Source of the DNA: an uncultured Lachnospiraceae bacterium
GTDB lineage: Bacteria > Bacillota > Clostridia > Lachnospirales > Lachnospiraceae
Assembly: GCA_902781655.1 (NCBI GenBank)
Contig: CACZJZ010000005.1
Coordinates: 1 to 64,000, forward strand
Reading direction: 5' to 3'
DNA length: 64,000 nucleotides
The position numbers and the translations under genes are program-made. Position 1 is the first letter of the stretch. Each line of letters begins with the position of its first letter. The notes under the pieces were generated by a model. That model saw only the letters and a list, made by a program, of their open reading frames with translations. It did no database searches and had not been told where the DNA came from. Positions 1-47,512 of the stretch are shown piece after piece.

Positions 1-15
1 TAAGAAGAAAAAAAT

Positions 16-107
16 GCTTACCGCGGCGAGAAAATTTTGCTTACCAGGCGGAGAAAAAACTCCTTACCGCCGGCTGTAAAATCAGCTTACCGCGCACATA
101 AATCTCC
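16..107. repeat. Four degenerate 23-bp direct repeats
   Basis: The core (G/C)CTTACC occurs at 16, 39, 62 and 85, exactly 23 bp apart. Each core is followed by a GC-rich stretch and then an A-rich stretch. Regular spacing near two helical turns suggests a binding array, such as transposase-binding repeats at an insertion-sequence end or plasmid-type iterons, just upstream of the ORF at 116. The window edge hides whether more copies lie to the left. Confidence 0.6.
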
Positions 108-115
108 TCTCAGAT

Positions 116-574
116 ATGGAAATCTATGTTGATAATCTTGCCGGAATGCAATTTAGAAACATCAACAAAATGATTGAACAGACACGTGTGCGTCTTCAAA
201 ATAAAGGCATTTCAGATGAAGACCATTACATGAAGACTTTAGAAGCTGCAACTATATCTGAAGACAACTATTTTAACAATCTTCTTGGAAATGACATTGT
301 CAAAATAGCAAAAGCTATACGAGATGCCCACTGCAAAGATGCAGAAACTGGTGATGCAACCACACCAGTTGACGATATACTTGACTCATTTGAAGAGTTA
401 ATGACTGCCGACAATGCCACTCAGGCTCAGATGGTTATGTACAGCAAGCTTTTCAAAATCAATTTTACCAAAATGGATCCCTATGAATTTAAAACCTTTA
501 CAGACATCTTTCAGAGATACTCGGATCTCTGTAAACCGGTAAAAGGGAATGGTCGCGGCAAGAGGAAAAAATAA
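116..574 (+). CDS. Hypothetical protein in AT-rich edge region
   Basis: A 152-residue frame with no family I recognise. The protein is soluble, mixed-charge and probably helical, with no signal peptide or membrane segment, and ends in a basic tail (GKGNGRGKRKK). The ATG at 116 has no clear Shine-Dalgarno sequence and lies directly after the 23-bp repeat array; the frame is closed by a stop at 77-79, so a longer N-terminus is not possible here. It could be an accessory gene of a mobile element, a small DNA-binding protein or a remnant. It converges on the GNAT-methyltransferase gene, with about 140 bp of AT-rich DNA between. Coding status is moderately sure; function is unknown. Confidence 0.5.
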   Translation: MEIYVDNLAGMQFRNINKMIEQTRVRLQNKGISDEDHYMKTLEAATISEDNYFNNLLGNDIVKIAKAIRDAHCKDAETGDATTPVDDILDSFEELMTADNATQAQMVMYSKLFKINFTKMDPYEFKTFTDIFQRYSDLCKPVKGNGRGKRKK

Positions 575-713
575 CACTTATCTGAAGCTCTGTTTGTTTT
601 TAGCAGCAAACTTTACTTGGACATAGAAAAAGATGTACTTCCTGCAAATAACTGCCATTAGGTATTTACAAAAGTACACCTTTAGTGTCTCTATAGAATG
701 ACATATTAAATAA

Positions 714-2003
714 TTATACTTTTTTACATATATACAAAAGATGATTTGTATTCCCAAGCAATTCCCTTTTTTCTGAGTATGACATATACCAATCTGAAAG
801 TCTCTTAAAGTCATCGTCGGAGATTGCAAAATCGGCCCGATGCTCAATTGGCTCAATAAGTCCGTCCACACCTGCCGTTGTAATATACGTCACATTTTTA
901 TTCTTAAACAGATTCTCAAATTCTGAAATATCATAACCGGTAAAGAGTTGTTCTTTAAAATGTCTAATCTTATTATCGTCTGTAAAATTCAATTCCTGTC
1001 CTTTAGACCAATTTCCATAAAAGTAATTTGAATACATAATTGCATATACTGATATAAATGCAAACATTATCACTCCATCTGGTCTGGTTACTCTGATAGC
1101 TTCGTCGATTGCCCTATTAACTTCTTCGCTCTCGTACAAGTGATATAGTGGTCCAAATACAAGTGTAACATCAAAGCTATTATCTTCTAACATATTAAGA
1201 TTTGTGGCATCTGCCTTAATTGACCTTATATTACTGATACTCTTGCTTTTATCCTTTAGAATTTCCAAATTCTTATCAACAAGTTCAACGGCAGTTACAT
1301 CCATTCCTTCTTTTGCCAGGGCTATGGAATATCTTCCTGTTCCTGCTCCTATTTCCAAAATCTTTGAATTATTATCACAAAACCTGTGGATATAATTCAT
1401 CGTCGTAGTAAATTCAAGTCTCCCATGCACAGTTCTTTCAAGGCGACCATCCTCTTCATATTGAGAGTAAAATTTGTTGATGATTTCTTCCCTTGAAGAA
1501 CCTTCCTCAATCTCATTTATCCTTGTAAAATACTCTTTTTCATTTTCATGATGAATATATGCTCCATTTTTTATCTGCACACGGAGGCTTGCAGGATTAT
1601 CTTTATTAACAGACATATACACTTCATGAATGCACATCTGCCTTGCCTTTGTAAGAGTAAGTTCCAGCCCTTTCGTTGCATATCCCTTTCCACGATATTT
1701 TTTTGAAATGCAATAGCCAATATGTCCAGGTCCTTCCCTCAAAAAATCATTCAAACAATGTCTCAAATTAAAAACACCGACATAAACATCTTCATCAACA
1801 AGCACATATGTAGTATCAGGAACAAATCCTTCAGGAAGATTTTTCCCCATTGACCAATCTCTCTTTTTCTCAATCCACTCAAGAAACTGCTCATAGCTAT
1901 AACCGTATACATTATTCATGTACCCGTTTTCATTTTCAGGAAAGGACATATAAAGCTCATATGTTTTTCGATAATCAGAATCCTGTACACTTACTAGTTC
2001 CAT
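714..2003 (-). CDS. GNAT acetyltransferase-SAM methyltransferase fusion
   Basis: The 429-residue protein has two enzymatic halves. Residues about 1-165 resemble a GNAT N-acetyltransferase of the RimJ type, including the acetyl-CoA loop region YRGKGYATKG. Residues about 175-429 are a class I SAM-dependent methyltransferase with motif I ILEIGAGTGRYSIALA and a later RVTRPDGVIMFAF segment. The substrate cannot be read from the sequence; a small molecule or antibiotic is possible because such fusions often sit in accessory DNA. The ATG at 2003 has a GGAGG at 2011-2015. Upstream lie a consensus promoter, a 35-codon ORF and a terminator-like hairpin, which suggests attenuation. The gene is AT-rich compared with the chromosome to its right, consistent with transfer. 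Confidence 0.85.
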   Translation of the reverse strand: MELVSVQDSDYRKTYELYMSFPENENGYMNNVYGYSYEQFLEWIEKKRDWSMGKNLPEGFVPDTTYVLVDEDVYVGVFNLRHCLNDFLREGPGHIGYCISKKYRGKGYATKGLELTLTKARQMCIHEVYMSVNKDNPASLRVQIKNGAYIHHENEKEYFTRINEIEEGSSREEIINKFYSQYEEDGRLERTVHGRLEFTTTMNYIHRFCDNNSKILEIGAGTGRYSIALAKEGMDVTAVELVDKNLEILKDKSKSISNIRSIKADATNLNMLEDNSFDVTLVFGPLYHLYESEEVNRAIDEAIRVTRPDGVIMFAFISVYAIMYSNYFYGNWSKGQELNFTDDNKIRHFKEQLFTGYDISEFENLFKNKNVTYITTAGVDGLIEPIEHRADFAISDDDFKRLSDWYMSYSEKRELLGNTNHLLYICKKV

Positions 2004-2035
2004 AACAAATCCTCCATTTTCATTTTATATAAAGA

Positions 2036-2070
2036 AAGCCTCATCAAACCACTATAGTCTGATGAGGCTT
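2036..2070 (-). terminator. Terminator-like hairpin, possible attenuator
   Basis: The arms AAGCCTCATCA and TGATGAGGCTT pair perfectly over 11 bp around a 13-nt loop. On the minus strand the stem is followed by TCTTTATAT. It lies between the 35-codon ORF and the start of the GNAT-methyltransferase gene, about 30 nt before its ATG, so read-through would be needed to express the enzyme from the promoter at 2243-2271. Confidence 0.65.
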
Positions 2071-2100
2071 CACTCTTTATTATATGTTTTAACAATATCA

Positions 2101-2208
2101 CTAAATATATTGTCGTTCCTCATCATCTACAACACCAAAAGTCCCCTGATTTGTATTCACGGGATTAGAATTTGGTGTATTAAAATTATTGAGGGATGTA
2201 TATTTCAT
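2101..2208 (-). CDS. 35-residue leader peptide or small protein
   Basis: A small ORF too short for routine gene calling. It starts at ATG 2208 with GTAGGA about 9 nt upstream and ends with TAG at 2101-2103. The peptide is rich in Asn and Thr, starts MKYTSLNNFNTPNSNP and ends VVDDEERQYI. It is the first ORF after the strong promoter at 2243-2271 and is followed by the hairpin at 2036-2070 and then the GNAT-methyltransferase gene. That order is typical of a translated attenuator leader, for example drug-responsive ones, but a free-standing small protein cannot be excluded. I recognise no homologue. Confidence 0.5.
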   Translation of the reverse strand: MKYTSLNNFNTPNSNPVNTNQGTFGVVDDEERQYI

Positions 2209-2242
2209 ATTTTTTCCTACTTTTTCAATTTTTTTATTTTTG

Positions 2243-2271
2243 AGTATAATCATGTGCCTTCGTCATGTCAA
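2243..2271 (-). promoter_or_regulatory. Consensus sigma-A promoter for leader/GNAT-methyltransferase
   Basis: On the minus strand a perfect -35 TTGACA (2266-2271) is separated by 17 bp from the -10 TATACT (2243-2248). It begins about 10 bp downstream of the stop of the grpB-like gene and drives the 35-codon ORF and, past the hairpin, the fusion enzyme. Confidence 0.75.
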
Positions 2272-2281
2272 CCAAAAATCC

Positions 2282-2785
2282 TCACATCATAGAATAAATA
2301 TTCTCTATAACCGGCGCCTTGTGTTCAATATATTTATCAATATCCTCCGGATACAAGGAAGCAGCCTCCACCTTAATTTTACTATATTCATTTACAGCCT
2401 CTGGATGCACTCTGAGATAATCCCTGAATGCAAGATGTCTTTTCAACTCCAAAGAATCCTCCGGGCACACGTATAAATGATGTTGCTGTAAATGTTCTTT
2501 GCCTTCATATGCGAAAGCTTCTCTCCCAGGTATTCCGAGATTTCCTTCATGGATGTAACCAATTTTATTAAGGGCTGATATAGCATTATTAAGATTTTCA
2601 TTTTTTACAACAATATCAATGTCTATAATTGGCTTAGCCGCCAATCCTTTAACTGACGTACTGCCGACATGCTCAATAGAAATAGCAATCTCTCCGAGTG
2701 CCTGACTAAGTTCAGTTTTTATGTCAATATAGTCCTGCTTCCACTTTTCATCATATGGAAGTACAACAACATGTTTTGTTCTCAT
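2282..2785 (-). CDS. GrpB/UPF0157 family nucleotidyltransferase-fold protein
   Basis: The 167-residue protein matches the GrpB (UPF0157) family: an N-terminal VVLPYDEKWKQDYIDIK segment, the conserved HVGSTSVKGLAAKP motif and IIDIDIVV, which resemble a nucleotidyltransferase-type active site (GS plus D-x-D). Members are often fused to dephospho-CoA kinase, but their role is poorly defined. The ATG lies 4 nt after the isochorismatase-family stop, with ATGGAGAA inside the preceding gene as ribosome binding site, so the two are probably co-transcribed. Full length for the family. It belongs to the AT-rich accessory patch. Confidence 0.85.
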   Translation of the reverse strand: MRTKHVVVLPYDEKWKQDYIDIKTELSQALGEIAISIEHVGSTSVKGLAAKPIIDIDIVVKNENLNNAISALNKIGYIHEGNLGIPGREAFAYEGKEHLQQHHLYVCPEDSLELKRHLAFRDYLRVHPEAVNEYSKIKVEAASLYPEDIDKYIEHKAPVIENIYSMM

Positions 2786-2789
2786 TAAG

Positions 2790-3314
2790 CTATTTCTCCA
2801 TCATTTCAATTGCTTCTTCCAAAGAAATGCAATCGGCAAATCTCTTTGGCCACATCATTTCATTGTAATATTTATAAGTCGTTTCGCCATCCATGTAATC
2901 ATTATCAAATTTAGAATTCGTCCCATTTGGAATGATTACTCTGTATCCTCTTTCAAAAGCTGATTTCACAGAGGCATCAATACAGAAGTTAGTCTGAAGT
3001 CCCACAATCATAAGTACTTTATCTTTCTGTTTATCAAGATACGTGGCAAGCTCTTTATTCCCAAAACAACTGTTAATCTCTTTTACAAAAATCTTATCAC
3101 CAGCTTCTGGAGCAACTTGATCAACTATCTCAAAATCTACATCACCAATAGAAAATCCTGTCCCCGGACCATCATCGTGTTGAACATAAATAACCTCAAC
3201 ACTATTCTTCCTTGCGGCATCAATGATACTTGTCACATTCTTTATGAATCCATCAAAATCATATAATCTTTCGTCCGTAATTCCTTTTTGTATATCTATT
3301 ACAATGAGCTTCAC
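2790..3314 (-). CDS. Isochorismatase-family cysteine hydrolase
   Basis: A cysteine hydrolase of the isochorismatase/nicotinamidase superfamily. The three catalytic positions are visible: Asp in VIDIQKG, Lys in IFVKEINSCF and Cys in LQTNFCIDASV, the last preceded by the usual bulge region. The substrate (isochorismate, nicotinamide, a carbamoyl compound or another amide) cannot be assigned. I start it at GTG 3314 rather than the ATG at 3356, because GGAGG at 3323-3327 lies 8 nt upstream and the family core starts right after this codon. It is followed at 4 nt by the GrpB-family gene. It lies 66 nt downstream of rlmD on the same strand. Confidence 0.85.
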   Translation of the reverse strand: MKLIVIDIQKGITDERLYDFDGFIKNVTSIIDAARKNSVEVIYVQHDDGPGTGFSIGDVDFEIVDQVAPEAGDKIFVKEINSCFGNKELATYLDKQKDKVLMIVGLQTNFCIDASVKSAFERGYRVIIPNGTNSKFDNDYMDGETTYKYYNEMMWPKRFADCISLEEAIEMMEK

Positions 3315-3380
3315 TCTATATTCCTCCAAGTCCGATCTATAGTTACCGTGGTACATTAAGCTGTAAGATAAATTTGCTTC

Positions 3381-5195
3381 TTATATCATCTGAAAATGCC
3401 TCAAAGCATCCTCTATCGCCTTAACCTTTTCCTCCGGACATCCAGGCTGTCTGCTATTCTCAGATTTTGGCTTATTGTAATTTTCACGCTCTATGATCCC
3501 ATGTTTCTGCTTAACCTGTGCAATGTTCAGGTTTGTTACATGAAATCCGTATTTCTCCTGCACCCACTCCCCAATCTCTTTGTATGTTGCCTTAGCTTCA
3601 GCACTTGTAAGATCAAGTTCATCCATATCTAGCTTAACATTGACATGATGCTTTGCCTCATGAAGTTTGGACAATAAACATACCGTTTCTATCCCCGCCG
3701 TCCACGGGAACATGTCAACGCAGACCGCCTTCTGCAGGCGGTATCCCGCGAGATAAAACGCCGGAATATCCCGCGCCAGGCTTGTGGGCTTGCAGGAGAT
3801 ATATAGAATATTCGGGACCTGATACTGCAAAATCTTCGGCAGAGCCTTCGGATGGATCCCGTCCCGCGGCGGATCGAGGACGATCACGTCCGGTTTGTCC
3901 GGGATCTGATCGATCACCTTCAGCACATCCCCTGCGATAAATTTGCAGTTTGTAAGTCCATTCACCACGGCATTCTCCCTTGCCGCCTGTACAGCCTCCT
4001 CCACGATCTCGACACCGACGACCTTTCGCGCGGATTTTGCCATCAGCTGGGAAATTGTGCCAGTTCCGGAATACAGATCAAACAGGACCGGCCTTCTGTC
4101 CGCGTCGCATTCTCCGGTTCTGGGATGACAATCCTCCTGCGCGGCTGCTTCCGTCTTCCTATCATCCATACCCGTACCGCAGATGCCCTGCAGATAGTCC
4201 CGCGCCGTCTGGTACAGGACCTCCGCTCCCTCGCTGTTCGTCTGGAAGAAGGAGAATGGTGTCACGCGGAATTTGAGTCCCAGAATTTCCTCCGTGAAGC
4301 TGTCCTCTCCGAACAGGATCTCCGTCCCTTGATCGATCACCGCGTCCGCCAGCGAATCATTATGGGTGTGCAGAATGCCGCGAATCGTGCCCTCAAGCGG
4401 AAGGGCAAGCAGCGTCTCCGCCCACAGTCTGATGTCCTCTGCGTGCTCCTCCTGCGTCGTCGTCACAAGGTCCACCAGAATTTCCCCGGTGTGCCGTGCC
4501 TTGCGGATCAGGAGATGGCGCAGGAAACCCTGATGATGCATCCGGTGATAACAGGTTACAGCCTTGTCCGCATACCGCTGTCCCCAGAAATCGCGCGTTG
4601 ACCGTAGAATAGCCCGGAAATCCGCATCCACGATGCAGCAGTCTGTCACCGTCAGGATGTCATAGAACCCGCCGCGCCGGTGCTGCCCCACCGCCAGCGG
4701 ACCGTCCCGGTACTCGTCCCCGAATGTGAACTCCATCTTATTCCGATATTCGTAGACCGCCGGCGACGTCTTGATTCCCTGAAAGTCAAAATGCGACCCG
4801 GACGGATTCTGCGCCATCCACCCGCTGTTCTCAGGATCGGGAGTCGTCCGCTTCACCGCGGCTTCTGCCTCGCCGACTGCCTGATCCAGGAGCGCCTTCA
4901 CCTGCTGCGCCTTGAGTTTTGTCGTCTCCTCATAAGGAAGATTCTGCCACGTGCAGCCTCCGCAGACGCCGAAATGCGGGCACCTGGGTGCCGTCTCAAG
5001 CGGAGAGGGGGAAATGACCCGGAGGAGTCTTGCCTCCGCGCGCTTCTCCCCATGCTTTTTCTGAATCTGTGCCTCGACCGTCTGCCCCTCCACTGTATTC
5101 TTGACTGTGACGGTTCCCTGCTCCGTCCGGACCAGTCCGCGGTTTGGAAATGCGACGCGATCCACGCGTCCCGTGATGATGTCGCCCTTCTTCAT
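3381..5195 (-). CDS. rlmD: 23S rRNA (uracil-5-)-methyltransferase RlmD/RumA with extra C-terminal domain
   Basis: RumA-type enzyme that methylates C5 of a 23S rRNA uracil. A TRAM domain covers about residues 1-60; an Fe-S cluster site has Cys72, Cys78, Cys81 and Cys186 or 187; the SAM domain shows DLYSGTGT (373-380) and VLDPPRDG (439-446); the catalytic Cys is C468 in ISCKPTSLARD. A further domain of about 90 residues (from about 512, ending DALRHFQMI) follows the normal enzyme; I recall it from other Clostridia but know no function for it. I chose ATG 5195 (GAGGT 6 nt upstream) over an upstream TTG at 5282. DNA coding for the extra domain is clearly more AT-rich than the rest of the gene. 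Confidence 0.9.
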   Translation of the reverse strand: MKKGDIITGRVDRVAFPNRGLVRTEQGTVTVKNTVEGQTVEAQIQKKHGEKRAEARLLRVISPSPLETAPRCPHFGVCGGCTWQNLPYEETTKLKAQQVKALLDQAVGEAEAAVKRTTPDPENSGWMAQNPSGSHFDFQGIKTSPAVYEYRNKMEFTFGDEYRDGPLAVGQHRRGGFYDILTVTDCCIVDADFRAILRSTRDFWGQRYADKAVTCYHRMHHQGFLRHLLIRKARHTGEILVDLVTTTQEEHAEDIRLWAETLLALPLEGTIRGILHTHNDSLADAVIDQGTEILFGEDSFTEEILGLKFRVTPFSFFQTNSEGAEVLYQTARDYLQGICGTGMDDRKTEAAAQEDCHPRTGECDADRRPVLFDLYSGTGTISQLMAKSARKVVGVEIVEEAVQAARENAVVNGLTNCKFIAGDVLKVIDQIPDKPDVIVLDPPRDGIHPKALPKILQYQVPNILYISCKPTSLARDIPAFYLAGYRLQKAVCVDMFPWTAGIETVCLLSKLHEAKHHVNVKLDMDELDLTSAEAKATYKEIGEWVQEKYGFHVTNLNIAQVKQKHGIIERENYNKPKSENSRQPGCPEEKVKAIEDALRHFQMI

Positions 5196-5250
5196 ATCGA
5201 TACCTCGTGTCTCTTTTTCCGTGACAGCCAGATGTCCCTGCACAGAAGAA

Positions 5251-5271
5251 GGCGATCCGCCCTGGATCGCC
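5251..5271 (-). terminator. Short GC-rich hairpin before rlmD
   Basis: The arms GGCGATCC and GGATCGCC form an 8-bp stem with a 5-nt loop. On the minus strand it is followed by TTCTTCT. It lies between the small membrane protein gene and rlmD and could terminate the upstream transcript. The T-tract is weak. Confidence 0.4.
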
Positions 5272-5389
5272 TCACTCTTCAATACTATTTTGCCTTGCTC
5301 TTTGGCACAATGATCATGAAGCCATTTTCCCGCTCTTTTCCCACTTTGTCTGTGCCATGCAGGTTTCTGTTATCCTTCATCCGGATCGG

Positions 5390-5704
5390 TCATTCCACCG
5401 GAATGCTGTCTTCTTCGTGCTCCTTCTCTGCCTTCGCCTTTTCTTCCTTTACTGCCTCGCGGGCCGCCTCTTCCTCCTCGGCATCCTCGCTCTCGTAATC
5501 ATCGTCAAAATCGTCGTCATAATCCTCGAAATAATCCGGGGTCATGAACCGGTACACGCCGTAGGCAACTGCCGCAACACAGGCGATCACACCGATCACC
5601 GCCAGGATCCAGAGAAGCGGATTTGTCTTATGATCGTCCTTCCTGTTCAGAATATCATCCATTTTTTTCATCGCCAGAAGATCCTCCCATCGGTCATCCT
5701 TCAT
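5390..5704 (-). CDS. Small single-pass membrane protein with acidic C-terminus
   Basis: The 104-residue protein has a charged N-terminus, one strong transmembrane helix (about residues 29-51, LLWILAVIGVIACVAAVAYG) and a very acidic tail (DYFEDYDDDFDDDYESED, then Glu/Lys-rich sequence). I do not know the family or function. Orientation is probably N-in with the acidic tail outside, but that is inference. The ATG at 5704 has GGAGG 5 nt upstream; the frame continues upstream to 5752 without a better ribosome binding site. It lies between pcrA and rlmD on the same strand and may be co-transcribed with pcrA. Confidence 0.7.
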   Translation of the reverse strand: MKDDRWEDLLAMKKMDDILNRKDDHKTNPLLWILAVIGVIACVAAVAYGVYRFMTPDYFEDYDDDFDDDYESEDAEEEEAAREAVKEEKAKAEKEHEEDSIPVE

Positions 5705-5782
5705 CATGCCCTCCTCTTCTCTTTTTCCACAGCTTCCAATTGTATATTCCATGCCGCGAAAAAATATCTGAAGTATTAGTAA

Positions 5783-8266
5783 CTATAGCACCTTTTCGAG
5801 CTTCGCAAAAGCGGCATACATGACTTTCTGCCCATATGTGTCGAATTTCACTGTCACCTTGTAATCGCGCGGCGTCTCTTCAATCTGTTCCACCACGCCC
5901 TCGCCGAATTTTACATGGCGCACCCGGTCCCCGACCTCATAGGAGGGCTTCTCCATCTGAAACGAGGAACCCTTCTTTAAACCGGAAAGGCTCTTCGTGC
6001 GGGCAATAAACGGTTTATGCGCATCATCGGTGTGTGTTCCCCGGTACACAGCCTTCGGCCGTCCGTCCGCGCTGTAAGCCGCGGGTCTCGGCTTTTCCTC
6101 CGTATCGTACGCATCGGCATAGGAACGCGCGATACGCCGCGCACCATAGGAAGCGTTTCGTCCATTCCCGCCAGCCTGTCTTCCTGCATAGCCGTAGGTC
6201 ACAAAGGTCCTGCCGTGTCCGGAGCTGCCATAACCCCCATCATCCTCAAACGGCTCGTCCTCTTCTGCGCCATCCTCGTCCCAGTCATCTTCCGACCACG
6301 CATTTCGTTTTGTCAGCTTTCCATCGAGCAGCGTCTGCGGAATCTCATTGACAAACCGGCTCACCGCATTGAAGTGCAGCTCCCCGCGGAGCATCCGGGA
6401 CTTCGCACAGGTCAGCGTCAGCTCTGATTTTGCCCGCGTGATACCGACATAGCAGAGGCGGCGCTCCTCCTCCATCTCCTCCGCGTTCTCCGAGTGAATG
6501 GTCATCTCTCCGGGGAAGATGCCTTCCTCCATGCCCGCCATATAGACGCAGGGGAACTCCAGTCCCTTCGCGGAATGAAGCGTCATAAGGAGGACCCGGT
6601 TGTCGTCCTCGCCCACGCTGTCAATATCGGCGATCAGCGCGACCTCCTCCAGAAAGCCGGAGAGCGTCGCCGGCTCCTCCGCCGCGGACTGTTCATAGGA
6701 GACCGCCTTCGTCACCAGTTCATCGATATTCCCGATGCGATCGTCCGCGTCCTCCTCATCGGATTCCTTCAGCAGCTCGACGTATCCCGTGTCGGCGATC
6801 ACCTTCTTCAGAAGCTCCGACACGGCCGCATCGCTCCCTTCCTTCTCCTCCCGGAACTTCCGGAGGGAGTGAATGAGCTCCGTGAACGGCATAATTTTGG
6901 CGGCAGTGCTCCTGGAGAGCGTCGGAACCTGTCCAGCCCGCTCCAGCGCCTCAAAGAAACTGATGCCATGCGCTGCCGCGAACTCCGCCACCTTATCCTG
7001 CGTCGCCGCGCCGATCCCGCGCTTCGGCACATTCAGGATCCGGCGCACCGCGATGTCGTCGGCCCCGTTGTCCACTGTCTTGAGATACGCCAGCAGGTCC
7101 TTGATTTCCTTCCGCGCATAGAAATTCGTTCCGCCGACCACGTTATACGGAATCGAATCCATCACAAAGCGCTCCTCCAGAACGCGGGCCTGCGCATTTG
7201 TCCGATAGAGCACGGCAAAATCGCGGTAGGACAGACTGTTCTGCCCGTCCATCCTGTCCCGGATATCGTCCGCGATAAACTCCGCCTCCTCCATCGCATC
7301 ACGCAACTGATGAAAGTGCACTCTGGCGCCGGCGCCCTGGCTCGTCCAGAGCGACTTCTCCTTTCGATTCACATTGTTGTGAATCACTGCGTTCGCCGCG
7401 TCGAGAATATTCTGCGTGGAGCGATAATTTTGCTCAAGACGCACCACAAAAGCGTCCGGGAATACCGTCTCAAAATCCAGAATGTTCCGGATATCCGCAC
7501 CGCGAAACTTGTATATCGACTGATCGTCGTCACCCACTACGCAAAGATTCCTGCTGCCAGCCGAAAGCTGCCGGATCAGCTCAAACTGCGCCCGATTCGT
7601 ATCCTGATATTCATCGACATGAATATACTGAAAACGGTTCTGATAATTCTGCAGAACCTCCGCATGGGACGTAAAAAGCTCCACCGTCTTCATCAGCAGA
7701 TCGTCAAAATCCAGCGCATTGTTCTTATGAAGCTCGCTCTGATACTCCTCGTAGCAGTCGGCAATCTGCCGCTCCTGAAACGTGAACGTGTGCTTCTCCC
7801 GATACTGCATCGGCGTCTCCAGCTGATTCTTGGCGCCCGATACCGCACTCAGCACAGTCCGCTCCCGCAGCTGCTTCGGATCGATATTCTGATGCTTCAT
7901 CACCTGCTTCATCAGCGTCTTCTGATCATCCGTGTCATAGATCGTGAAACCCGTCTTATATCCGATCAGATCAATATAACGACGCAGAATCCGCACACAC
8001 ATCGAATGAAACGTCGATACCCAGATACTCTCTGATCCGAAGCCGACCAGCCTGTCCACCCGCTCCCGCATTTCTCCCGCCGCCTTGTTTGTGAACGTGA
8101 TGGCGAGAATATTCCATGGATTCACCCCCTTCTCAATCAGATATGCGATCCGGTGCGTGATCACCCGCGTCTTGCCCGAGCCAGCTCCCGCCAGAATCAG
8201 AACCGGCCCCTCCGTGTGAAAACATGCCTCCTGCTGCTCCTTGTTCAGAGAATCGTAAATACCCAT
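5783..8266 (-). CDS. pcrA: ATP-dependent DNA helicase PcrA/UvrD
   Basis: Superfamily 1A 3'-5' helicase used in nucleotide excision repair, rolling-circle replication and removal of RecA or RNA polymerase. Visible motifs are Walker A LAGAGSGKT near residue 30, VDEYQDTNRAQF (motif II), GDDDQSIYKFRGA (motif III), EQNYRST (motif IV) and TLHSAKGLEFPCVYMAGMEE (motif V), then VGITRAKSELTLT (motif VI). The C-terminal 60 residues are the PcrA-type Tudor-like RNA polymerase interaction domain (YEVGDRVRHVKFGEGVVEQI). At 827 residues it is somewhat longer than usual because of a low-complexity linker. A large palindromic repeat lies just upstream of its start. Confidence 0.95.
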   Translation of the reverse strand: MGIYDSLNKEQQEACFHTEGPVLILAGAGSGKTRVITHRIAYLIEKGVNPWNILAITFTNKAAGEMRERVDRLVGFGSESIWVSTFHSMCVRILRRYIDLIGYKTGFTIYDTDDQKTLMKQVMKHQNIDPKQLRERTVLSAVSGAKNQLETPMQYREKHTFTFQERQIADCYEEYQSELHKNNALDFDDLLMKTVELFTSHAEVLQNYQNRFQYIHVDEYQDTNRAQFELIRQLSAGSRNLCVVGDDDQSIYKFRGADIRNILDFETVFPDAFVVRLEQNYRSTQNILDAANAVIHNNVNRKEKSLWTSQGAGARVHFHQLRDAMEEAEFIADDIRDRMDGQNSLSYRDFAVLYRTNAQARVLEERFVMDSIPYNVVGGTNFYARKEIKDLLAYLKTVDNGADDIAVRRILNVPKRGIGAATQDKVAEFAAAHGISFFEALERAGQVPTLSRSTAAKIMPFTELIHSLRKFREEKEGSDAAVSELLKKVIADTGYVELLKESDEEDADDRIGNIDELVTKAVSYEQSAAEEPATLSGFLEEVALIADIDSVGEDDNRVLLMTLHSAKGLEFPCVYMAGMEEGIFPGEMTIHSENAEEMEEERRLCYVGITRAKSELTLTCAKSRMLRGELHFNAVSRFVNEIPQTLLDGKLTKRNAWSEDDWDEDGAEEDEPFEDDGGYGSSGHGRTFVTYGYAGRQAGGNGRNASYGARRIARSYADAYDTEEKPRPAAYSADGRPKAVYRGTHTDDAHKPFIARTKSLSGLKKGSSFQMEKPSYEVGDRVRHVKFGEGVVEQIEETPRDYKVTVKFDTYGQKVMYAAFAKLEKVL

Positions 8267-44083: not shown

Positions 44084-44623
44084 TCAACCGGACTTGCTCC
44101 GCCCGGCGTCGCGCAGAAAGACAGCTGCCCGCTTTGTCGCCGCCATCAGAGGCCTGTACAGAATCAGGCACAGGGCAAAATTGCTGACGCCGTGCAGGAT
44201 ATCATACGGTATGCCCGCCACCCACCACGTGAACGCCATGCTCCACCCACCGACTGCCAGATAAGGAATCGAACACAGCGCGCCGAAGCAGAATCCGAAC
44301 AAAGCTGAGAAAACAGCATGAAACCAGTAAGAGGCATGCCTCCGGGTAAAGTGGACGAACAGGATTTCCGCCGGCCAGATGTAAAGGTACATGATAACCC
44401 AGTTGTTCACACCCCAGAAAGCCGTCTCCACCAGCGTGAAGGCGACGGACACCGCCAGAACCTCCAGTCCGAAGTTGAGCGTGAAAACCATAAACAGAAG
44501 GGTCACCAGCTCCACATTCGGAAGGAACTCCAGTGCCCGCTTGCTCACCTCGATCAGCGCCAGCATCATACCCATCGCCGCGATGTCACGGATGGTAAAC
44601 CTTCGCTTACTGTCCTTTTTCAT
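44084..44623 (-). CDS. ECF transporter S component, probable cobamide uptake
   Basis: About 180 residues with five or six hydrophobic helices (IAAMGMMLALIEVSKRALEF; LVTLLFMVFTLNFGLEVLAV; ALFGFCFGALCSIPYL; GIPYDILHGVSNFALCLILY). Size, topology and the GIPYD(I/L)xHGxxN end are those of an energy-coupling-factor substrate-binding S protein. The gene overlaps the DUF4430 gene and shares its cobalamin riboswitch, so the likely substrate is a cobamide or a precursor; no ECF ATPases are encoded in the window. ATG 44623 is chosen; an ATG at 44641 is possible. Confidence 0.82.
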   Translation of the reverse strand: MKKDSKRRFTIRDIAAMGMMLALIEVSKRALEFLPNVELVTLLFMVFTLNFGLEVLAVSVAFTLVETAFWGVNNWVIMYLYIWPAEILFVHFTRRHASYWFHAVFSALFGFCFGALCSIPYLAVGGWSMAFTWWVAGIPYDILHGVSNFALCLILYRPLMAATKRAAVFLRDAGRSKSG

Positions 44624-45080
44624 ACACAAACTGGAAATCATCGCCGTCCGCGACCGGCTGGGAATCCGCGCCGTACTGTCCCACTTCCCCGTTCACATAG
44701 ATGGACCAGTACGCCTTATCCTTGTCGTAATCCGCCGTCACACCGTTGATCGCCGTGATATACAGACCATAATCGCTCTGGGTTCCTTCATAGGAGAAGT
44801 CTCCCTCAGCTGCCAGCTCATCCATCAGACCGCTGAGATACTCCGCGTCTGTTCTGCCCTGATACGATTTTGTCTCTCCATTCTGATCGACGACCTCGAC
44901 CGTATATGCCTTTGTACCGGTCTGCGTCTTCGGCCCGAACTTACGATAGACACACAGGAGCACCGCAAGCAGCGCCGCGATCAGGATCACGCCGAATATT
45001 ATTTTCTTTCCTCTGCCCTTCTTTTTTCCTGCCTGTGTCTGCCCGATCTTTTCCCGTTTGACTTTTTCCTGCTGTTCCAT
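44607..45080 (-). CDS. DUF4430 membrane-anchored cobalamin-binding-like protein
   Basis: A 157-residue protein with a basic N-terminus, one membrane anchor (about 26-45) and an extracellular DUF4430 domain (about 57-154; LYITAINGVTADYDKDKAYW, then SIYVNGEVGQYGA and DGDDFQFVYEKG). DUF4430 resembles the C-terminal cobalamin-binding domain of transcobalamin/intrinsic factor. ATG 45080 follows AGGTA; the upstream frame to 45269 crosses the terminator and riboswitch and is not used. With the S component and the riboswitch this looks like a surface B12 capture system. Confidence 0.85.
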   Translation of the reverse strand: MEQQEKVKREKIGQTQAGKKKGRGKKIIFGVILIAALLAVLLCVYRKFGPKTQTGTKAYTVEVVDQNGETKSYQGRTDAEYLSGLMDELAAEGDFSYEGTQSDYGLYITAINGVTADYDKDKAYWSIYVNGEVGQYGADSQPVADGDDFQFVYEKGQ

Positions 45081-45147
45081 TCTGATCCAGTACCTCACTT
45101 TCTCTCTGGTGATGTTGTGCCAAAAGGTGCAGGCGCAGCCTTCAAAA

Positions 45148-45186
45148 AAGGACCCCTCTGCGGAATGCAGCCGCACGGGAGTCCTT
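45148..45186 (-). terminator. Terminator of the riboswitch expression platform
   Basis: On the minus strand the arms AAGGACTCC and GGGGTCCTT, with an inner TGCGG/CCGCA stem, are followed by TTTTTTG. It lies between the riboswitch and the DUF4430 gene and would stop transcription when cobalamin is bound. Confidence 0.85.
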
Positions 45187-45254
45187 CGAAATGGCAAAAC
45201 AAAACCAGAGCAGTCCGCTCTGTACGGGCTGCCAGGATTCGTGCCGCCAGGATC

Positions 45255-45412
45255 TCGTGGCGATTGCACCGCTGAAGGCAGGTCTCCCGGCTGATGGACG
45301 GCGTTTCACATGGAAATCAGCGATCCAATCACGGTGACGAGTTCGTGCGGGATCCTCACCCGCTTCCCTTTTCACCGGGCCCATCCGGCCCGGCACCTCC
45401 GGCCTATTCAAT
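45255..45412 (-). ncRNA. Cobalamin riboswitch
   Basis: On the minus strand the aptamer core is visible in order: GGAGGTGCCGGG, GGTGAAAAGGGAAGCGGGTG, GAGGATCCCGCACG, GTCACCGTGA and finally the B12 box AGCCGGGAGACCTGCC (45277-45292). These match the conserved elements of the adenosylcobalamin-type riboswitch. Boundaries are approximate. A terminator (45148-45186) follows. Confidence 0.93.
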
Positions 45413-45419
45413 GGGTGGC

Positions 45420-45513: not shown

Positions 45514-45542
45514 TTGCCAAAATCCGGCGATTATGGTTAAAT
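45514..45542 (+). promoter_or_regulatory. Promoter of the Fe-S scaffold/GGGtGRT operon
   Basis: TTGCCA (45514-45519) and TTAAAT (45537-45542) are spaced 17 bp; the leader to the ATG is about 80 nt. It faces away from the riboswitch promoter. Confidence 0.5.
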
Positions 45543-45629: not shown

Positions 45630-46322
45630 ATGGTTTACTCATCAGAAGTAAAGGATATGTGCGTCGTTCATCAGGGCGTGCATCATGGCGCGGCTCCCAT
45701 TCCGGAAGAAGCGAAATGGGTCAAGTCCAGGAAAGTGGAAGATATTTCCGGATATACGCACGGCGTTGGCTGGTGCGCACCGCAGCAGGGTGCCTGCAAG
45801 CTCTCCCTCAATGTCAAGGAGGGCATCATTCAGGAGGCCCTCATCGAGACAATCGGCTGCTCCGGCATGACGCACTCTGCTGCTATGGCAGCGGAAATTC
45901 TCCCCGGCCTGACCGTTCTTGAGGCGCTGAACACTGACCTGGTGTGCGATGCCATCAACACTGCTATGAGAGAGCTGTTCCTTCAGATCGCCTATGGCCG
46001 CTCCCAGTCCGCATTCTCTGAGGATGGCCTTCAGATCGGCGCAGGACTTGAGGATCTCGGCAAGGGAACCCGCTCCATGGTCGGTACTACCTACGGCACT
46101 CTGGCAAAGGGTCCCCGTTACCTGGAACTGACCGACGGCTATATCACCGAGCTGGCACTGGACGAAAACGATGAGATCATCGGTTATAAGTTCGTCAACT
46201 TCGGCAAGATGATGGACTTCATCAAGGCGGGCGACGATGCCAACACGGCATTCCAGAAGGCGTCCGGCAAGTATGGCCGTGTCGCGGATGCTGTGAAATT
46301 CATCGATCCCAGAAAGCAGTAA
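45630..46322 (+). CDS. NifU-like iron-sulfur cluster assembly scaffold protein
   Basis: A 230-residue protein with a NifU/IscU-like N-terminal domain (about 38-125; GWCAPQQGACKLSLNVKEG, IETIGCSGMTHSAAMAAEIL), then a separate region of about 100 residues of unknown fold (GTRSMVGTTYGTLAKGPRYL). Cysteines are at 11, 49, 56, 77 and 106; the canonical third IscU ligand region (LFLQIAYGRSQS) has no Cys, so cluster ligation may differ. ATG 45630 has AAGGAG 6 nt upstream. It is followed at 24 nt by the GGGtGRT gene. Codon use is strongly biased to few C-ending codons, suggesting high expression. Confidence 0.85.
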   Translation: MVYSSEVKDMCVVHQGVHHGAAPIPEEAKWVKSRKVEDISGYTHGVGWCAPQQGACKLSLNVKEGIIQEALIETIGCSGMTHSAAMAAEILPGLTVLEALNTDLVCDAINTAMRELFLQIAYGRSQSAFSEDGLQIGAGLEDLGKGTRSMVGTTYGTLAKGPRYLELTDGYITELALDENDEIIGYKFVNFGKMMDFIKAGDDANTAFQKASGKYGRVADAVKFIDPRKQ

Positions 46323-46346
46323 TCCAAGAAGGAGGAAAGTAAGACA

Positions 46347-47366
46347 ATGGCATTATTTGAATCATATGAAAGAAGAGAGCCCCAGATTCTGGCCACTCTG
46401 AACAAGTATGGCATTTCCTCCATCGAGGAATGCAAGACCATCACCGAGGCAGCCGGTCTGGATGTCTATCACCTTGTCGAGAATATTCAGCCCATCTGCT
46501 TCGAGAACGCAAAGTGGGCATACACCGTCGGCGCGGCGATCGCCATCAAGAAGAACTGCCGCAGGGCGGACGAGGCCGCTGCCGCAATCGGCGAGGGCCT
46601 GCAGAGCTTCTGCATCCCCGGATCGGTTGCTGACCGCCGTAAAGTAGGTCTTGGCCATGGCAATCTCGGCAAGATGCTCCTTGAGGAGAACACCGAGTGC
46701 TTCGCATTCCTCGCCGGCCACGAGTCCTTCGCAGCCGCAGAGGGCGCCATCGGTATCGCTGACAAGGCAAACAAGGTCCGCAAGAAGCCCCTTCGTGTCA
46801 TTCTGAACGGCCTTGGCAAGGATGCCGCCAAGATCATCTCCCGTGTCAACGGCTTCACCTATGTTGAGACAGAGTATGACTATTTCACCGGCGAACTCAA
46901 GGTTCTCTCCGAGACCTGCTACTCCAAGGATCCGACCAGCCCCCGCGCCAAGGTCCGCTGCTACGGCGCTGACGATGTGCAGGAAGGCGTCGCGATCATG
47001 TGGAAGGAGAATGTGGATATCTCCATCACCGGAAATTCCACCAACCCGACCAGATTCCAGCACCCTGTCGCAGGCACCTACAAGAAAGAGCGCCTCGAGG
47101 CAGGCAAGAAGTACTTCTCCGTGGCATCCGGCGGCGGCACAGGCCGTACTCTTCACCCGGACAACATGGCTGCAGGCCCTGCTTCCTACGGCATGACCGA
47201 CACCATGGGCCGTATGCACAGCGATGCGCAGTTCGCGGGTTCCTCCTCCGTCCCGGCACACGTCGAGATGATGGGCCTGATCGGCATGGGCAACAACCCG
47301 ATGGTTGGCGCCACCGTCTCCACCGCTGTTTCCGTAGCACTGGCTGCGGAACAGGGCAAGTTCTGA
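46347..47366 (+). CDS. GGGtGRT protein (function unknown)
   Basis: The 339-residue protein carries the motif that names the family, GGGTGRT, at 262-268. It is soluble, with no signal peptide. Seven Cys (29, 51, 71, 89, 118, 191, 205) and a glycine-rich C-terminus (MGLIGMGNNPMVGATVSTAV) stand out. The family is known by its motif and by its neighbouring Fe-S scaffold gene; no biochemical role is known to me. AAGGAGG precedes the ATG. It is the last gene of the pair, ended by a terminator at 47454-47512. A role in Fe-S or metal-cofactor metabolism is inferred from context only. Confidence 0.9.
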   Translation: MALFESYERREPQILATLNKYGISSIEECKTITEAAGLDVYHLVENIQPICFENAKWAYTVGAAIAIKKNCRRADEAAAAIGEGLQSFCIPGSVADRRKVGLGHGNLGKMLLEENTECFAFLAGHESFAAAEGAIGIADKANKVRKKPLRVILNGLGKDAAKIISRVNGFTYVETEYDYFTGELKVLSETCYSKDPTSPRAKVRCYGADDVQEGVAIMWKENVDISITGNSTNPTRFQHPVAGTYKKERLEAGKKYFSVASGGGTGRTLHPDNMAAGPASYGMTDTMGRMHSDAQFAGSSSVPAHVEMMGLIGMGNNPMVGATVSTAVSVALAAEQGKF

Positions 47367-47453
47367 TCAAACCTGCCCTGCAGTCCCTTGTCCAATCGGG
47401 TTCCTGCTCGCTGGCAGAGGTCACCGGGCAGGATTCCCATGTTTCAAAGAACA

Positions 47454-47512
47454 AAAGCACGACCGGTACATTCCGAACAGGAGCGCGCCGGTCGTGCTTT
47501 TTATCGTTTTTT
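47454..47512 (+). terminator. Intrinsic terminator after the GGGtGRT gene
   Basis: AAAGCACGACCGG and CCGGTCGTGCTTT form a 13-bp stem followed by TTATCGTTTTTTC. Confidence 0.9.

What the first reader, a model, noticed from the sequence alone, without database searches (positions are those of the whole stretch)
45630..47366. NifU-like scaffold paired with a GGGtGRT protein
A two-gene operon with its own promoter and terminator joins an atypical Fe-S scaffold (canonical third IscU ligand absent, extra 100-residue domain) to a seven-cysteine protein of unknown function carrying GGGTGRT. No sulfurase (IscS/NifS) or Suf gene is nearby. Strong codon bias suggests an abundant product. The pair may be a separate Fe-S delivery or storage route, or a metalloenzyme with its own scaffold.
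Basis: partly seen in the sequence, partly recalled or inferred. Interest (0 to 1): 0.7.

Follow-up and report, generated by a model that had tools for sequence, protein, structure and literature searches.

The report
Iron-linked NifU-like/GGGtGRT protein pair
Two neighbouring genes, kept side by side in many gut bacteria, encode a protein pair whose relatives in two species are made in larger amounts when iron is plentiful; it probably handles an iron-containing cofactor, but its function is not known.

Summary
The two genes are real: a NifU-like protein (45630-46322) and a PF14057 GGGtGRT protein (46347-47366), with a likely promoter and a terminator. They behave as one unit: the same 10 of 199 same-phylum genomes carry both families, and the NifU-like gene lies directly upstream in 89 of 90 loci (the other is cut by a contig end). 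None of the seven cysteines of GGGtGRT is invariant, while five histidines are. The scaffold keeps H44, C49, C77 and C106 in 92 of 92 sequences, so a third candidate ligand exists in a shifted place. Published tables show expression following iron: 7.1-fold for GGGtGRT in Clostridium pasteurianum, and an 11 to 12.8-fold fall under chelation in Bacteroides thetaiotaomicron. A model of GGGtGRT (pLDDT 79) has no significant PDB match; most of its best-conserved loop is unordered. Best reading: an obligate iron-dependent complex in which the NifU-like subunit carries a metal or cluster and GGGtGRT is its dedicated enzyme or acceptor. No metal, complex or activity has been shown.

The parts
45514..45542 (+). 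Likely promoter: TTGCCA, 17 nt, TTAAAT, with TATGG before the -10
   Evidence: Sequence. A related TRTGn-type site stands upstream in 24 of 73 operons, the window's not being one of the 24. Not listed by the consensus scan.
45630..46322 (+). NifU-like gene, 230 aa; invariant H44, C49, C77, C106; IscU-like core about 44-120, unassigned C-terminal part about 125-230
46347..47366 (+). GGGtGRT gene (PF14057), 339 aa; helical part 1-112, alpha/beta part 118-260, low-confidence conserved loop 262-303, C-terminal helices
   Evidence: PF14057 E 3.8e-189; conservation; model with pLDDT 79.1, pTM 0.82
47190..47366 (+). 3' end of the GGGtGRT gene: in relatives a target of integrating elements
   Evidence: Viral contigs, tyrosine recombinases beside the gene end in 10 of 10 ORFs tested, gene end copied inside L100, L101 and L104. 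No element was sought in, or noticed beside, the window copy; the gene is intact.
47453..47501 (+). Intrinsic terminator: 14-bp stem 47453-47466 / 47488-47501, then T-rich
   Evidence: Sequence

Best explanation
The two genes make an obligate two-protein complex that is expressed when iron is plentiful. The NifU-like subunit keeps the IscU-type core and binds a metal site, most likely an Fe-S cluster, through H44, C49, C77 and C106. The GGGtGRT subunit is an alpha/beta protein whose invariant loops (GHES 124-127, GLGKD 155-159, GNSTNP 229-234, GGGTGRT 262-268) each follow a strand and so probably face one pocket. The conserved loop 262-303 is of low confidence in the modelled monomer and would close on a ligand or on the partner. 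GGGtGRT is therefore the dedicated client or catalytic subunit, and the NifU-like protein its built-in metal or cluster carrier. Sulfur and cluster assembly would come from the separate Suf-type gene cluster of the genome. Shown: pairing, co-divergence, invariant residues; published: iron-dependent expression in two species. Inferred: the complex, the Fe-S nature of the site, the pocket, catalysis, the supply by Suf.
For: Same 10 of 199 genomes for both families; partner directly upstream in 89 of 90 loci and in 4 of 4 fetched plasmid-collection records (Vibrio, Collinsella, Persicobacter, Bacteroides); no other widely shared neighbour (most frequent 18 of 84 loci); distance correlation 0.89 over 86 operons against at most 0.39 in 2000 permutations; H44, C49, C77, C106 in 92 of 92; 134 columns of GGGtGRT without a variant in an alignment of 91, gaps set aside; partial but significant similarity to NifU of solved structure (E 1e-4); iron-dependent expression; own genome has two SUFBD_core genes, an Aminotran_5 and a NifU_N gene together on contig C3; model.
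Against: No biochemical evidence of metal or cluster. The NifU-like protein is under the Pfam cut-off and lacks the IscU spacing, so the site could hold zinc. No contact between the two proteins was modelled, and the NifU-like protein was not modelled at all. GGGtGRT has no significant fold match, so the enzyme idea rests on conservation. Related sequences raise any distance correlation, so 0.89 is weaker than the permutations suggest.
Confidence: 0.45

Rival explanations
1. An iron or Fe-S store or buffer: both proteins accumulate with iron and hold iron-sulfur that is released to other proteins when iron falls.
For: Higher with excess iron in Clostridium pasteurianum, 11 to 12.8-fold lower under chelation in Bacteroides thetaiotaomicron; listed in metaproteomes; low Nc of GGGtGRT; the window's genome has no strong ferritin match (best PF00210 match 26.5 bits, just over the cut-off of 24.5).
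Against: Presence of GGGtGRT is independent of ferritin: with a threshold of my own (E up to 1e-15), 27 of 122 carriers and 9 of 28 non-carriers have one, Fisher p = 0.33. Over 60% identity across phyla with Gly/His/Asp/Asn-rich invariant loops looks more like an active site. No invariant cysteine in GGGtGRT.
Confidence: 0.2
2. A general Fe-S scaffold and delivery route that serves many target proteins, parallel to Suf.
For: IscU-like core and three invariant cysteines; in one Collinsella record the pair lies about 2 kb from a suf cluster.
Against: No sulfurase, chaperone or carrier gene recognised by eye among neighbour clusters shared by 4 or more of 84 loci; expression falls under iron limitation, whereas Isc/Suf systems usually rise (recalled); the strict link with one partner suggests one client.
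Confidence: 0.12
3. A zinc- or sulfur-transfer subunit (SufU-like) fixed to an enzyme without Fe-S; iron acts only through general regulation.
For: A 3 Cys + 1 His set suits zinc as well; SufU of solved structure is named a zinc-dependent sulfurtransferase (title of 5xt5).
Against: The response to iron is strong: 7.1 is the largest value in the early Fe+ column of the C. pasteurianum table.
Confidence: 0.15

Closest known systems
GGGtGRT protein family, PF14057
   Same: Match over positions 1-325 of 327; the window protein is an ordinary member.
   Different: Nothing. No function is given in the passages that I read in 8 of the 17 papers holding the term.
IscU / NifU N-terminal scaffold (PF01592, TIGR01999, TIGR03419; 4eb5)
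   Same: Core 56-113 aligns with NifU-1 of 4eb5 at E 1e-4; C77 aligns with a conserved cysteine of IscU (its role as second ligand recalled).
   Different: Under the curated cut-offs; first cysteine shifted; no HCS motif; C106 in a shortened segment; extra C-terminal part; strict partner.
SufU; the own-genome NifU_N protein on contig C3 (L115)
   Same: Same broad superfamily; conserved cysteines.
   Different: The profile comparison covers 25 columns only (probability 23%); no desulfurase family match beside the window gene.
TSCPD 4-Cys family, TIGR03905
   Same: Possible similarity around G-[AT]-C and GC-[SA]-G; one of 31 members hits TSCPD at E 0.043.
   Different: Profile comparison weak (probability 10%); no TSCPD motif.
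IssA thioferrate store (PMC5524996; seen in a search listing with the start of its abstract)
   Same: Works-like comparison only: iron-sulfur storage as a possible role.
   Different: No sequence relation tested.

Membership tests
GGGtGRT, PF14057 | Score over the curated cut-off, full length, GGGTGRT motif | tested here: met
   628 bits against 27; positions 1-325 of 327; motif at residues 262-268
NifU_N / IscU scaffold (PF01592, TIGR01999) | Score over the curated cut-off | tested here: not met
   PF01592 19.7 bits against 22; iscU 18.9 against 192.4. Called NifU-like, not IscU.
NifU_N / IscU scaffold (PF01592, TIGR01999) | Three cluster cysteines in canonical places, third in an HCS motif (recalled) | tested here: not met
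   Three invariant cysteines exist (C49, C77, C106; 92 of 92), but only C77 aligns with a cysteine of IscU; no HCS motif in the window protein
NifU_N / IscU scaffold (PF01592, TIGR01999) | Assembles and transfers an Fe-S cluster | not testable with these tools
   Needs anaerobic biochemistry
SufU | Over the TIGR01994 cut-off, desulfurase gene beside it | tested here: not met
   15.4 bits against 92.5; the genome's NifU_N gene over the cut-off lies next to an Aminotran_5 gene on contig C3
TSCPD 4-Cys family (TIGR03905) | Profile similarity and TSCPD motif | tested here: inconclusive
   hhalign probability 10%, E 0.003 over 47 columns; no TSCPD motif
Iron store replacing ferritin | Presence complementary to ferritin | tested here: not met
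   Strong ferritin match in 27 of 122 carriers and 9 of 28 non-carriers, p = 0.33

The most novel reading that the evidence does not exclude
An undescribed iron-dependent enzyme, widespread in gut bacteria, with a fold not yet seen in the PDB. GGGtGRT is its catalytic subunit, and an IscU-like protein has become a permanent cluster-bearing subunit instead of a transient scaffold. The conserved loop 262-303 orders only when that cluster or the substrate is in place.
Probability: 0.25. Interest if true: 0.85.

Novelty: new variant of a known kind. Interest (0 to 1): 0.6.

Why it matters
GGGtGRT is present in 122 of 150 genomes (one per genus) of the window's family and the pair was seen in records of five phyla (Bacillota, Bacteroidota, Spirochaetota, Actinomycetota, Pseudomonadota). 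It shows up in rumen, chicken and human gut proteomics and responds strongly to iron, yet no function was found in the papers read. It offers a tractable test of how gut bacteria spend iron when they have it. If the IscU-like protein proves to be a fixed subunit, that would widen the roles of its fold.

Tried and rejected
Ferritin complementarity: no relation. Control by a known RNA switch: no Rfam match at the gathering score on the + strand of the window; the cobalamin riboswitch found points to the divergent genes. Conserved neighbourhood beyond the pair: none that is widely shared. Solved relatives of GGGtGRT by sequence: none of significance (best E 0.93 and 0.27). GGGtGRT model without an alignment: unusable, pLDDT 39.8. 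Fold comparison: 755 matches at E up to 10, none at 0.001; the first row (CooS-V, E 0.026, TM 0.23) and the phosphofructokinase rows (TM 0.23) are too weak to use. A joint -35/-10 promoter pattern as I wrote it matched 0 of 73 upstream regions, and three narrower -10 patterns 7, 13 and 4 of 73; the pattern with 24 of 73 was chosen after looking at the sequences. Papers by Pfam number: 8 hits, which by title concern Plasmodium or other unrelated matters. Searches on iron limitation and iron-sulfur storage gave nothing more on the pair in what I opened.

Full report
What is there. Two + strand genes, 45630-46322 and 46347-47366, lie 24 bases apart, each with a ribosome site. A likely promoter lies at 45514-45542 and a 14-bp stem terminator at 47453-47501. 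The downstream gene is a full-length PF14057 GGGtGRT protein (628 bits). The upstream protein has an IscU-like core recognised weakly by PF01592 and by NCBIfam NifU/IscU/SufU models, all under their cut-offs, and somewhat better by a profile of 31 members against solved structures (NifU-1, 4eb5, E 1e-4). Its last 100 residues match no Pfam family: all 31 members match NifU_N, and one also TSCPD at E 0.043.

Pairing. PF14057 was found in 10 of 199 genomes of the window's phylum. A profile of the NifU-like protein, at E up to 1e-10, was found in the same 10 of 199, next to it each time by coordinates. In the window's family 122 of 150 genomes carry PF14057, some as pieces at contig ends; the NifU-like profile was not run on that set. 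In these 80 plus the 10, the window itself included, the NifU-like gene lies directly upstream on the same strand in 89 of 90: 84 found by motif and 5 by tblastn. Several are cut by contig ends (for example L013, L081), and in L090 the NifU-like frame ends early (7162-7662). In L055 the contig begins at the GGGtGRT gene. Four of the 10 plasmid-collection records with a match were fetched (Vibrio, Collinsella, Persicobacter, Bacteroides) and all four hold the pair. Pairwise distances of the two proteins correlate at 0.89 over 86 operons (3655 distances; at most 0.39 in 2000 permutations; shared ancestry alone raises such values). No third gene is widely shared: the most frequent other neighbour, a topoisomerase-like gene (named by eye), occurs in 18 of 84 loci. 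In that script the pair itself was called in 72 of 84 loci each, probably because opposite-strand frames displaced it (a 14-locus cluster of such frames was listed).

Conserved residues. From 87 loci tried, my extraction kept 82 NifU-like and 81 GGGtGRT proteins; with the 10 that makes 92 and 91. Four Prevotella loci are among those dropped from one or both sets. In the 92 NifU-like sequences H44, C49, C77 and C106 never vary; C56 is kept in 90. HMMER places C77 on a conserved cysteine of human IscU, while the first IscU cysteine falls on Q53, four residues from C49 (their roles as ligands recalled). The alignment stops before the third IscU cysteine; C106 lies in a segment that looks shortened. 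A third ligand is thus likely present but displaced; this is inference, since this protein was not modelled. In 91 GGGtGRT proteins no cysteine is invariant: C118 in 88, C89 and C205 in 87, C51 in 80, C71 in 75, C29 in 24, C191 in 19. H104, H125, H239, H291 and H305 are in 91 of 91, and H270 in 90 with one undetermined residue.

Structure of GGGtGRT. Without an alignment the model failed (pLDDT 39.8). With 36 sequences it reached pLDDT 79.1 and pTM 0.82: helices to about 112, an alpha/beta part 118-260, C-terminal helices 302-335. The low-confidence stretches, 231-235, 262-269 and 271-303, include GGGTGRT and much of the best-conserved block (mean 0.97 for residues 281-320). Invariant loops follow four strands, which suggests one ligand pocket at an edge of the sheet; I read this from the order of elements, not from coordinates. 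Foldseek against the PDB found no match at E up to 0.001; the first row has a TM-score of 0.23. With a shallow alignment and a loose loop this does not prove a new fold.

Expression. In Clostridium pasteurianum the GGGtGRT protein is 7.1-fold (early) and 2.2-fold (late) higher with iron in excess. One NifU-related spot is 3.7- and 2.9-fold higher; a second spot has 2.4 and 1.6 in the same columns (and 0.4 and 0.6 in the opposite ones) (PMC5395762, section 11 read). In Bacteroides thetaiotaomicron the two genes fall 11 to 12.8-fold under 150 uM dipyridyl, P listed as 0 (PMC10434189, passages read). The term GGGtGRT occurs once in that paper, so no entry under that name was seen for P. gingivalis or P. 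intermedia; whether those two have the gene I did not test. Rumen, chicken caecum and human gut studies list one or both proteins (PMC7035244, PMC11204068, PMC13041051, PMC12101220, PMC12643325; passages read). PMC9942572 lists a GGGtGRT match among putative virulence factors found by software (passage read); I give this no weight. Codon bias is strong for GGGtGRT (Nc 35.1, second of 46) and modest for its partner (40.9, twelfth).

Genome setting. The own genome has two SUFBD_core genes, an Aminotran_5 gene and a NifU_N gene in a row on contig C3 (150602-154268), read here as a suf cluster, so the pair is an addition to a housekeeping system. Ferritin shows no relation to the pair. A tree of 32 GGGtGRT proteins (35 were named, three Prevotella rows were missing from my file) groups Treponema with Bacteroidales inside a clade with Alistipes (98/96), which suggests transfer between phyla; the Vibrio, Collinsella and Persicobacter rows are long.

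Reading. The strict pairing, the high conservation of both, invariant metal-type residues in one and pocket-type residues in the other, and expression that follows iron fit a dedicated complex better than a general scaffold. Storage and zinc-based readings remain open. Searches of print: 'GGGtGRT' (17 papers; 8 opened; of the rest several look by title like primer matches, and PMC12014591 on rectal cancer was not opened), Pfam number, BT0173/BT0174, NifU with Bacteroides, NifU with iron limitation, iron-sulfur storage. None of the passages read gives a function; subscription journals and preprints are not in that library.

Side result. The 3' end of the GGGtGRT gene is an integration target in relatives. 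Of 20 viral-contig loci, 14 match only from residue 270 on: in 8 the match lies at a contig edge, in 6 (L098, L100-L104) inside the contig. Ten of ten neighbouring ORFs that I chose from ten loci are tyrosine recombinases. One contig has the gene end twice (L096, L104), with a 67-base exact repeat.

Noticed in passing
3' end of the GGGtGRT gene, window 47190-47366; relatives L091-L110: Integrating elements in viral contigs sit at the 3' end of this gene; L100, L101 and L104 carry a copy of its last codons inside the contig, and 10 of 10 adjacent ORFs tested are tyrosine recombinases. The window gene is intact.
   Followed up: partly
Upstream regions of the operon in relatives (among L011-L090): T[AG]TG[ACT]GA[AG]AAT, an extended -10 with G at its first position, occurs upstream of 24 of 73 operons, against 43 matches in 2.2 million bases (both strands) of the loci. 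The pattern was chosen after looking, the operons are related, and the window's own promoter does not match it. A link with iron is untested.
   Followed up: partly
window 45260-45415, - strand: Cobalamin riboswitch (68.2 bits) ahead of the divergent ORFs 44607-45269 and 44084-44641, which may be cobalamin uptake genes (inferred, not searched).
   Followed up: no
G283, C1:1347696-1348673 and C1:1561325-1562305: This genome carries two full-length GGGtGRT genes, the second scoring about 100 bits lower; its partner was not examined.
   Followed up: no
L112 (Collinsella), 1-6993: The pair lies about 2 kb downstream of a sufB-sufD-sufS-sufU cluster, with a transposase gene between; the only such neighbour that I noticed in an annotated record.
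   Followed up: no
L090 (Treponema sp. UBA1240), 7162-7662: The NifU-like frame is short (501 bases) ahead of a full GGGtGRT gene; assembly error or a real break, not examined.
   Followed up: no
L074, L090 (Treponema): Their GGGtGRT proteins group with Bacteroidales inside a clade with Alistipes (98/96 support), a sign of transfer between phyla.
   Followed up: partly
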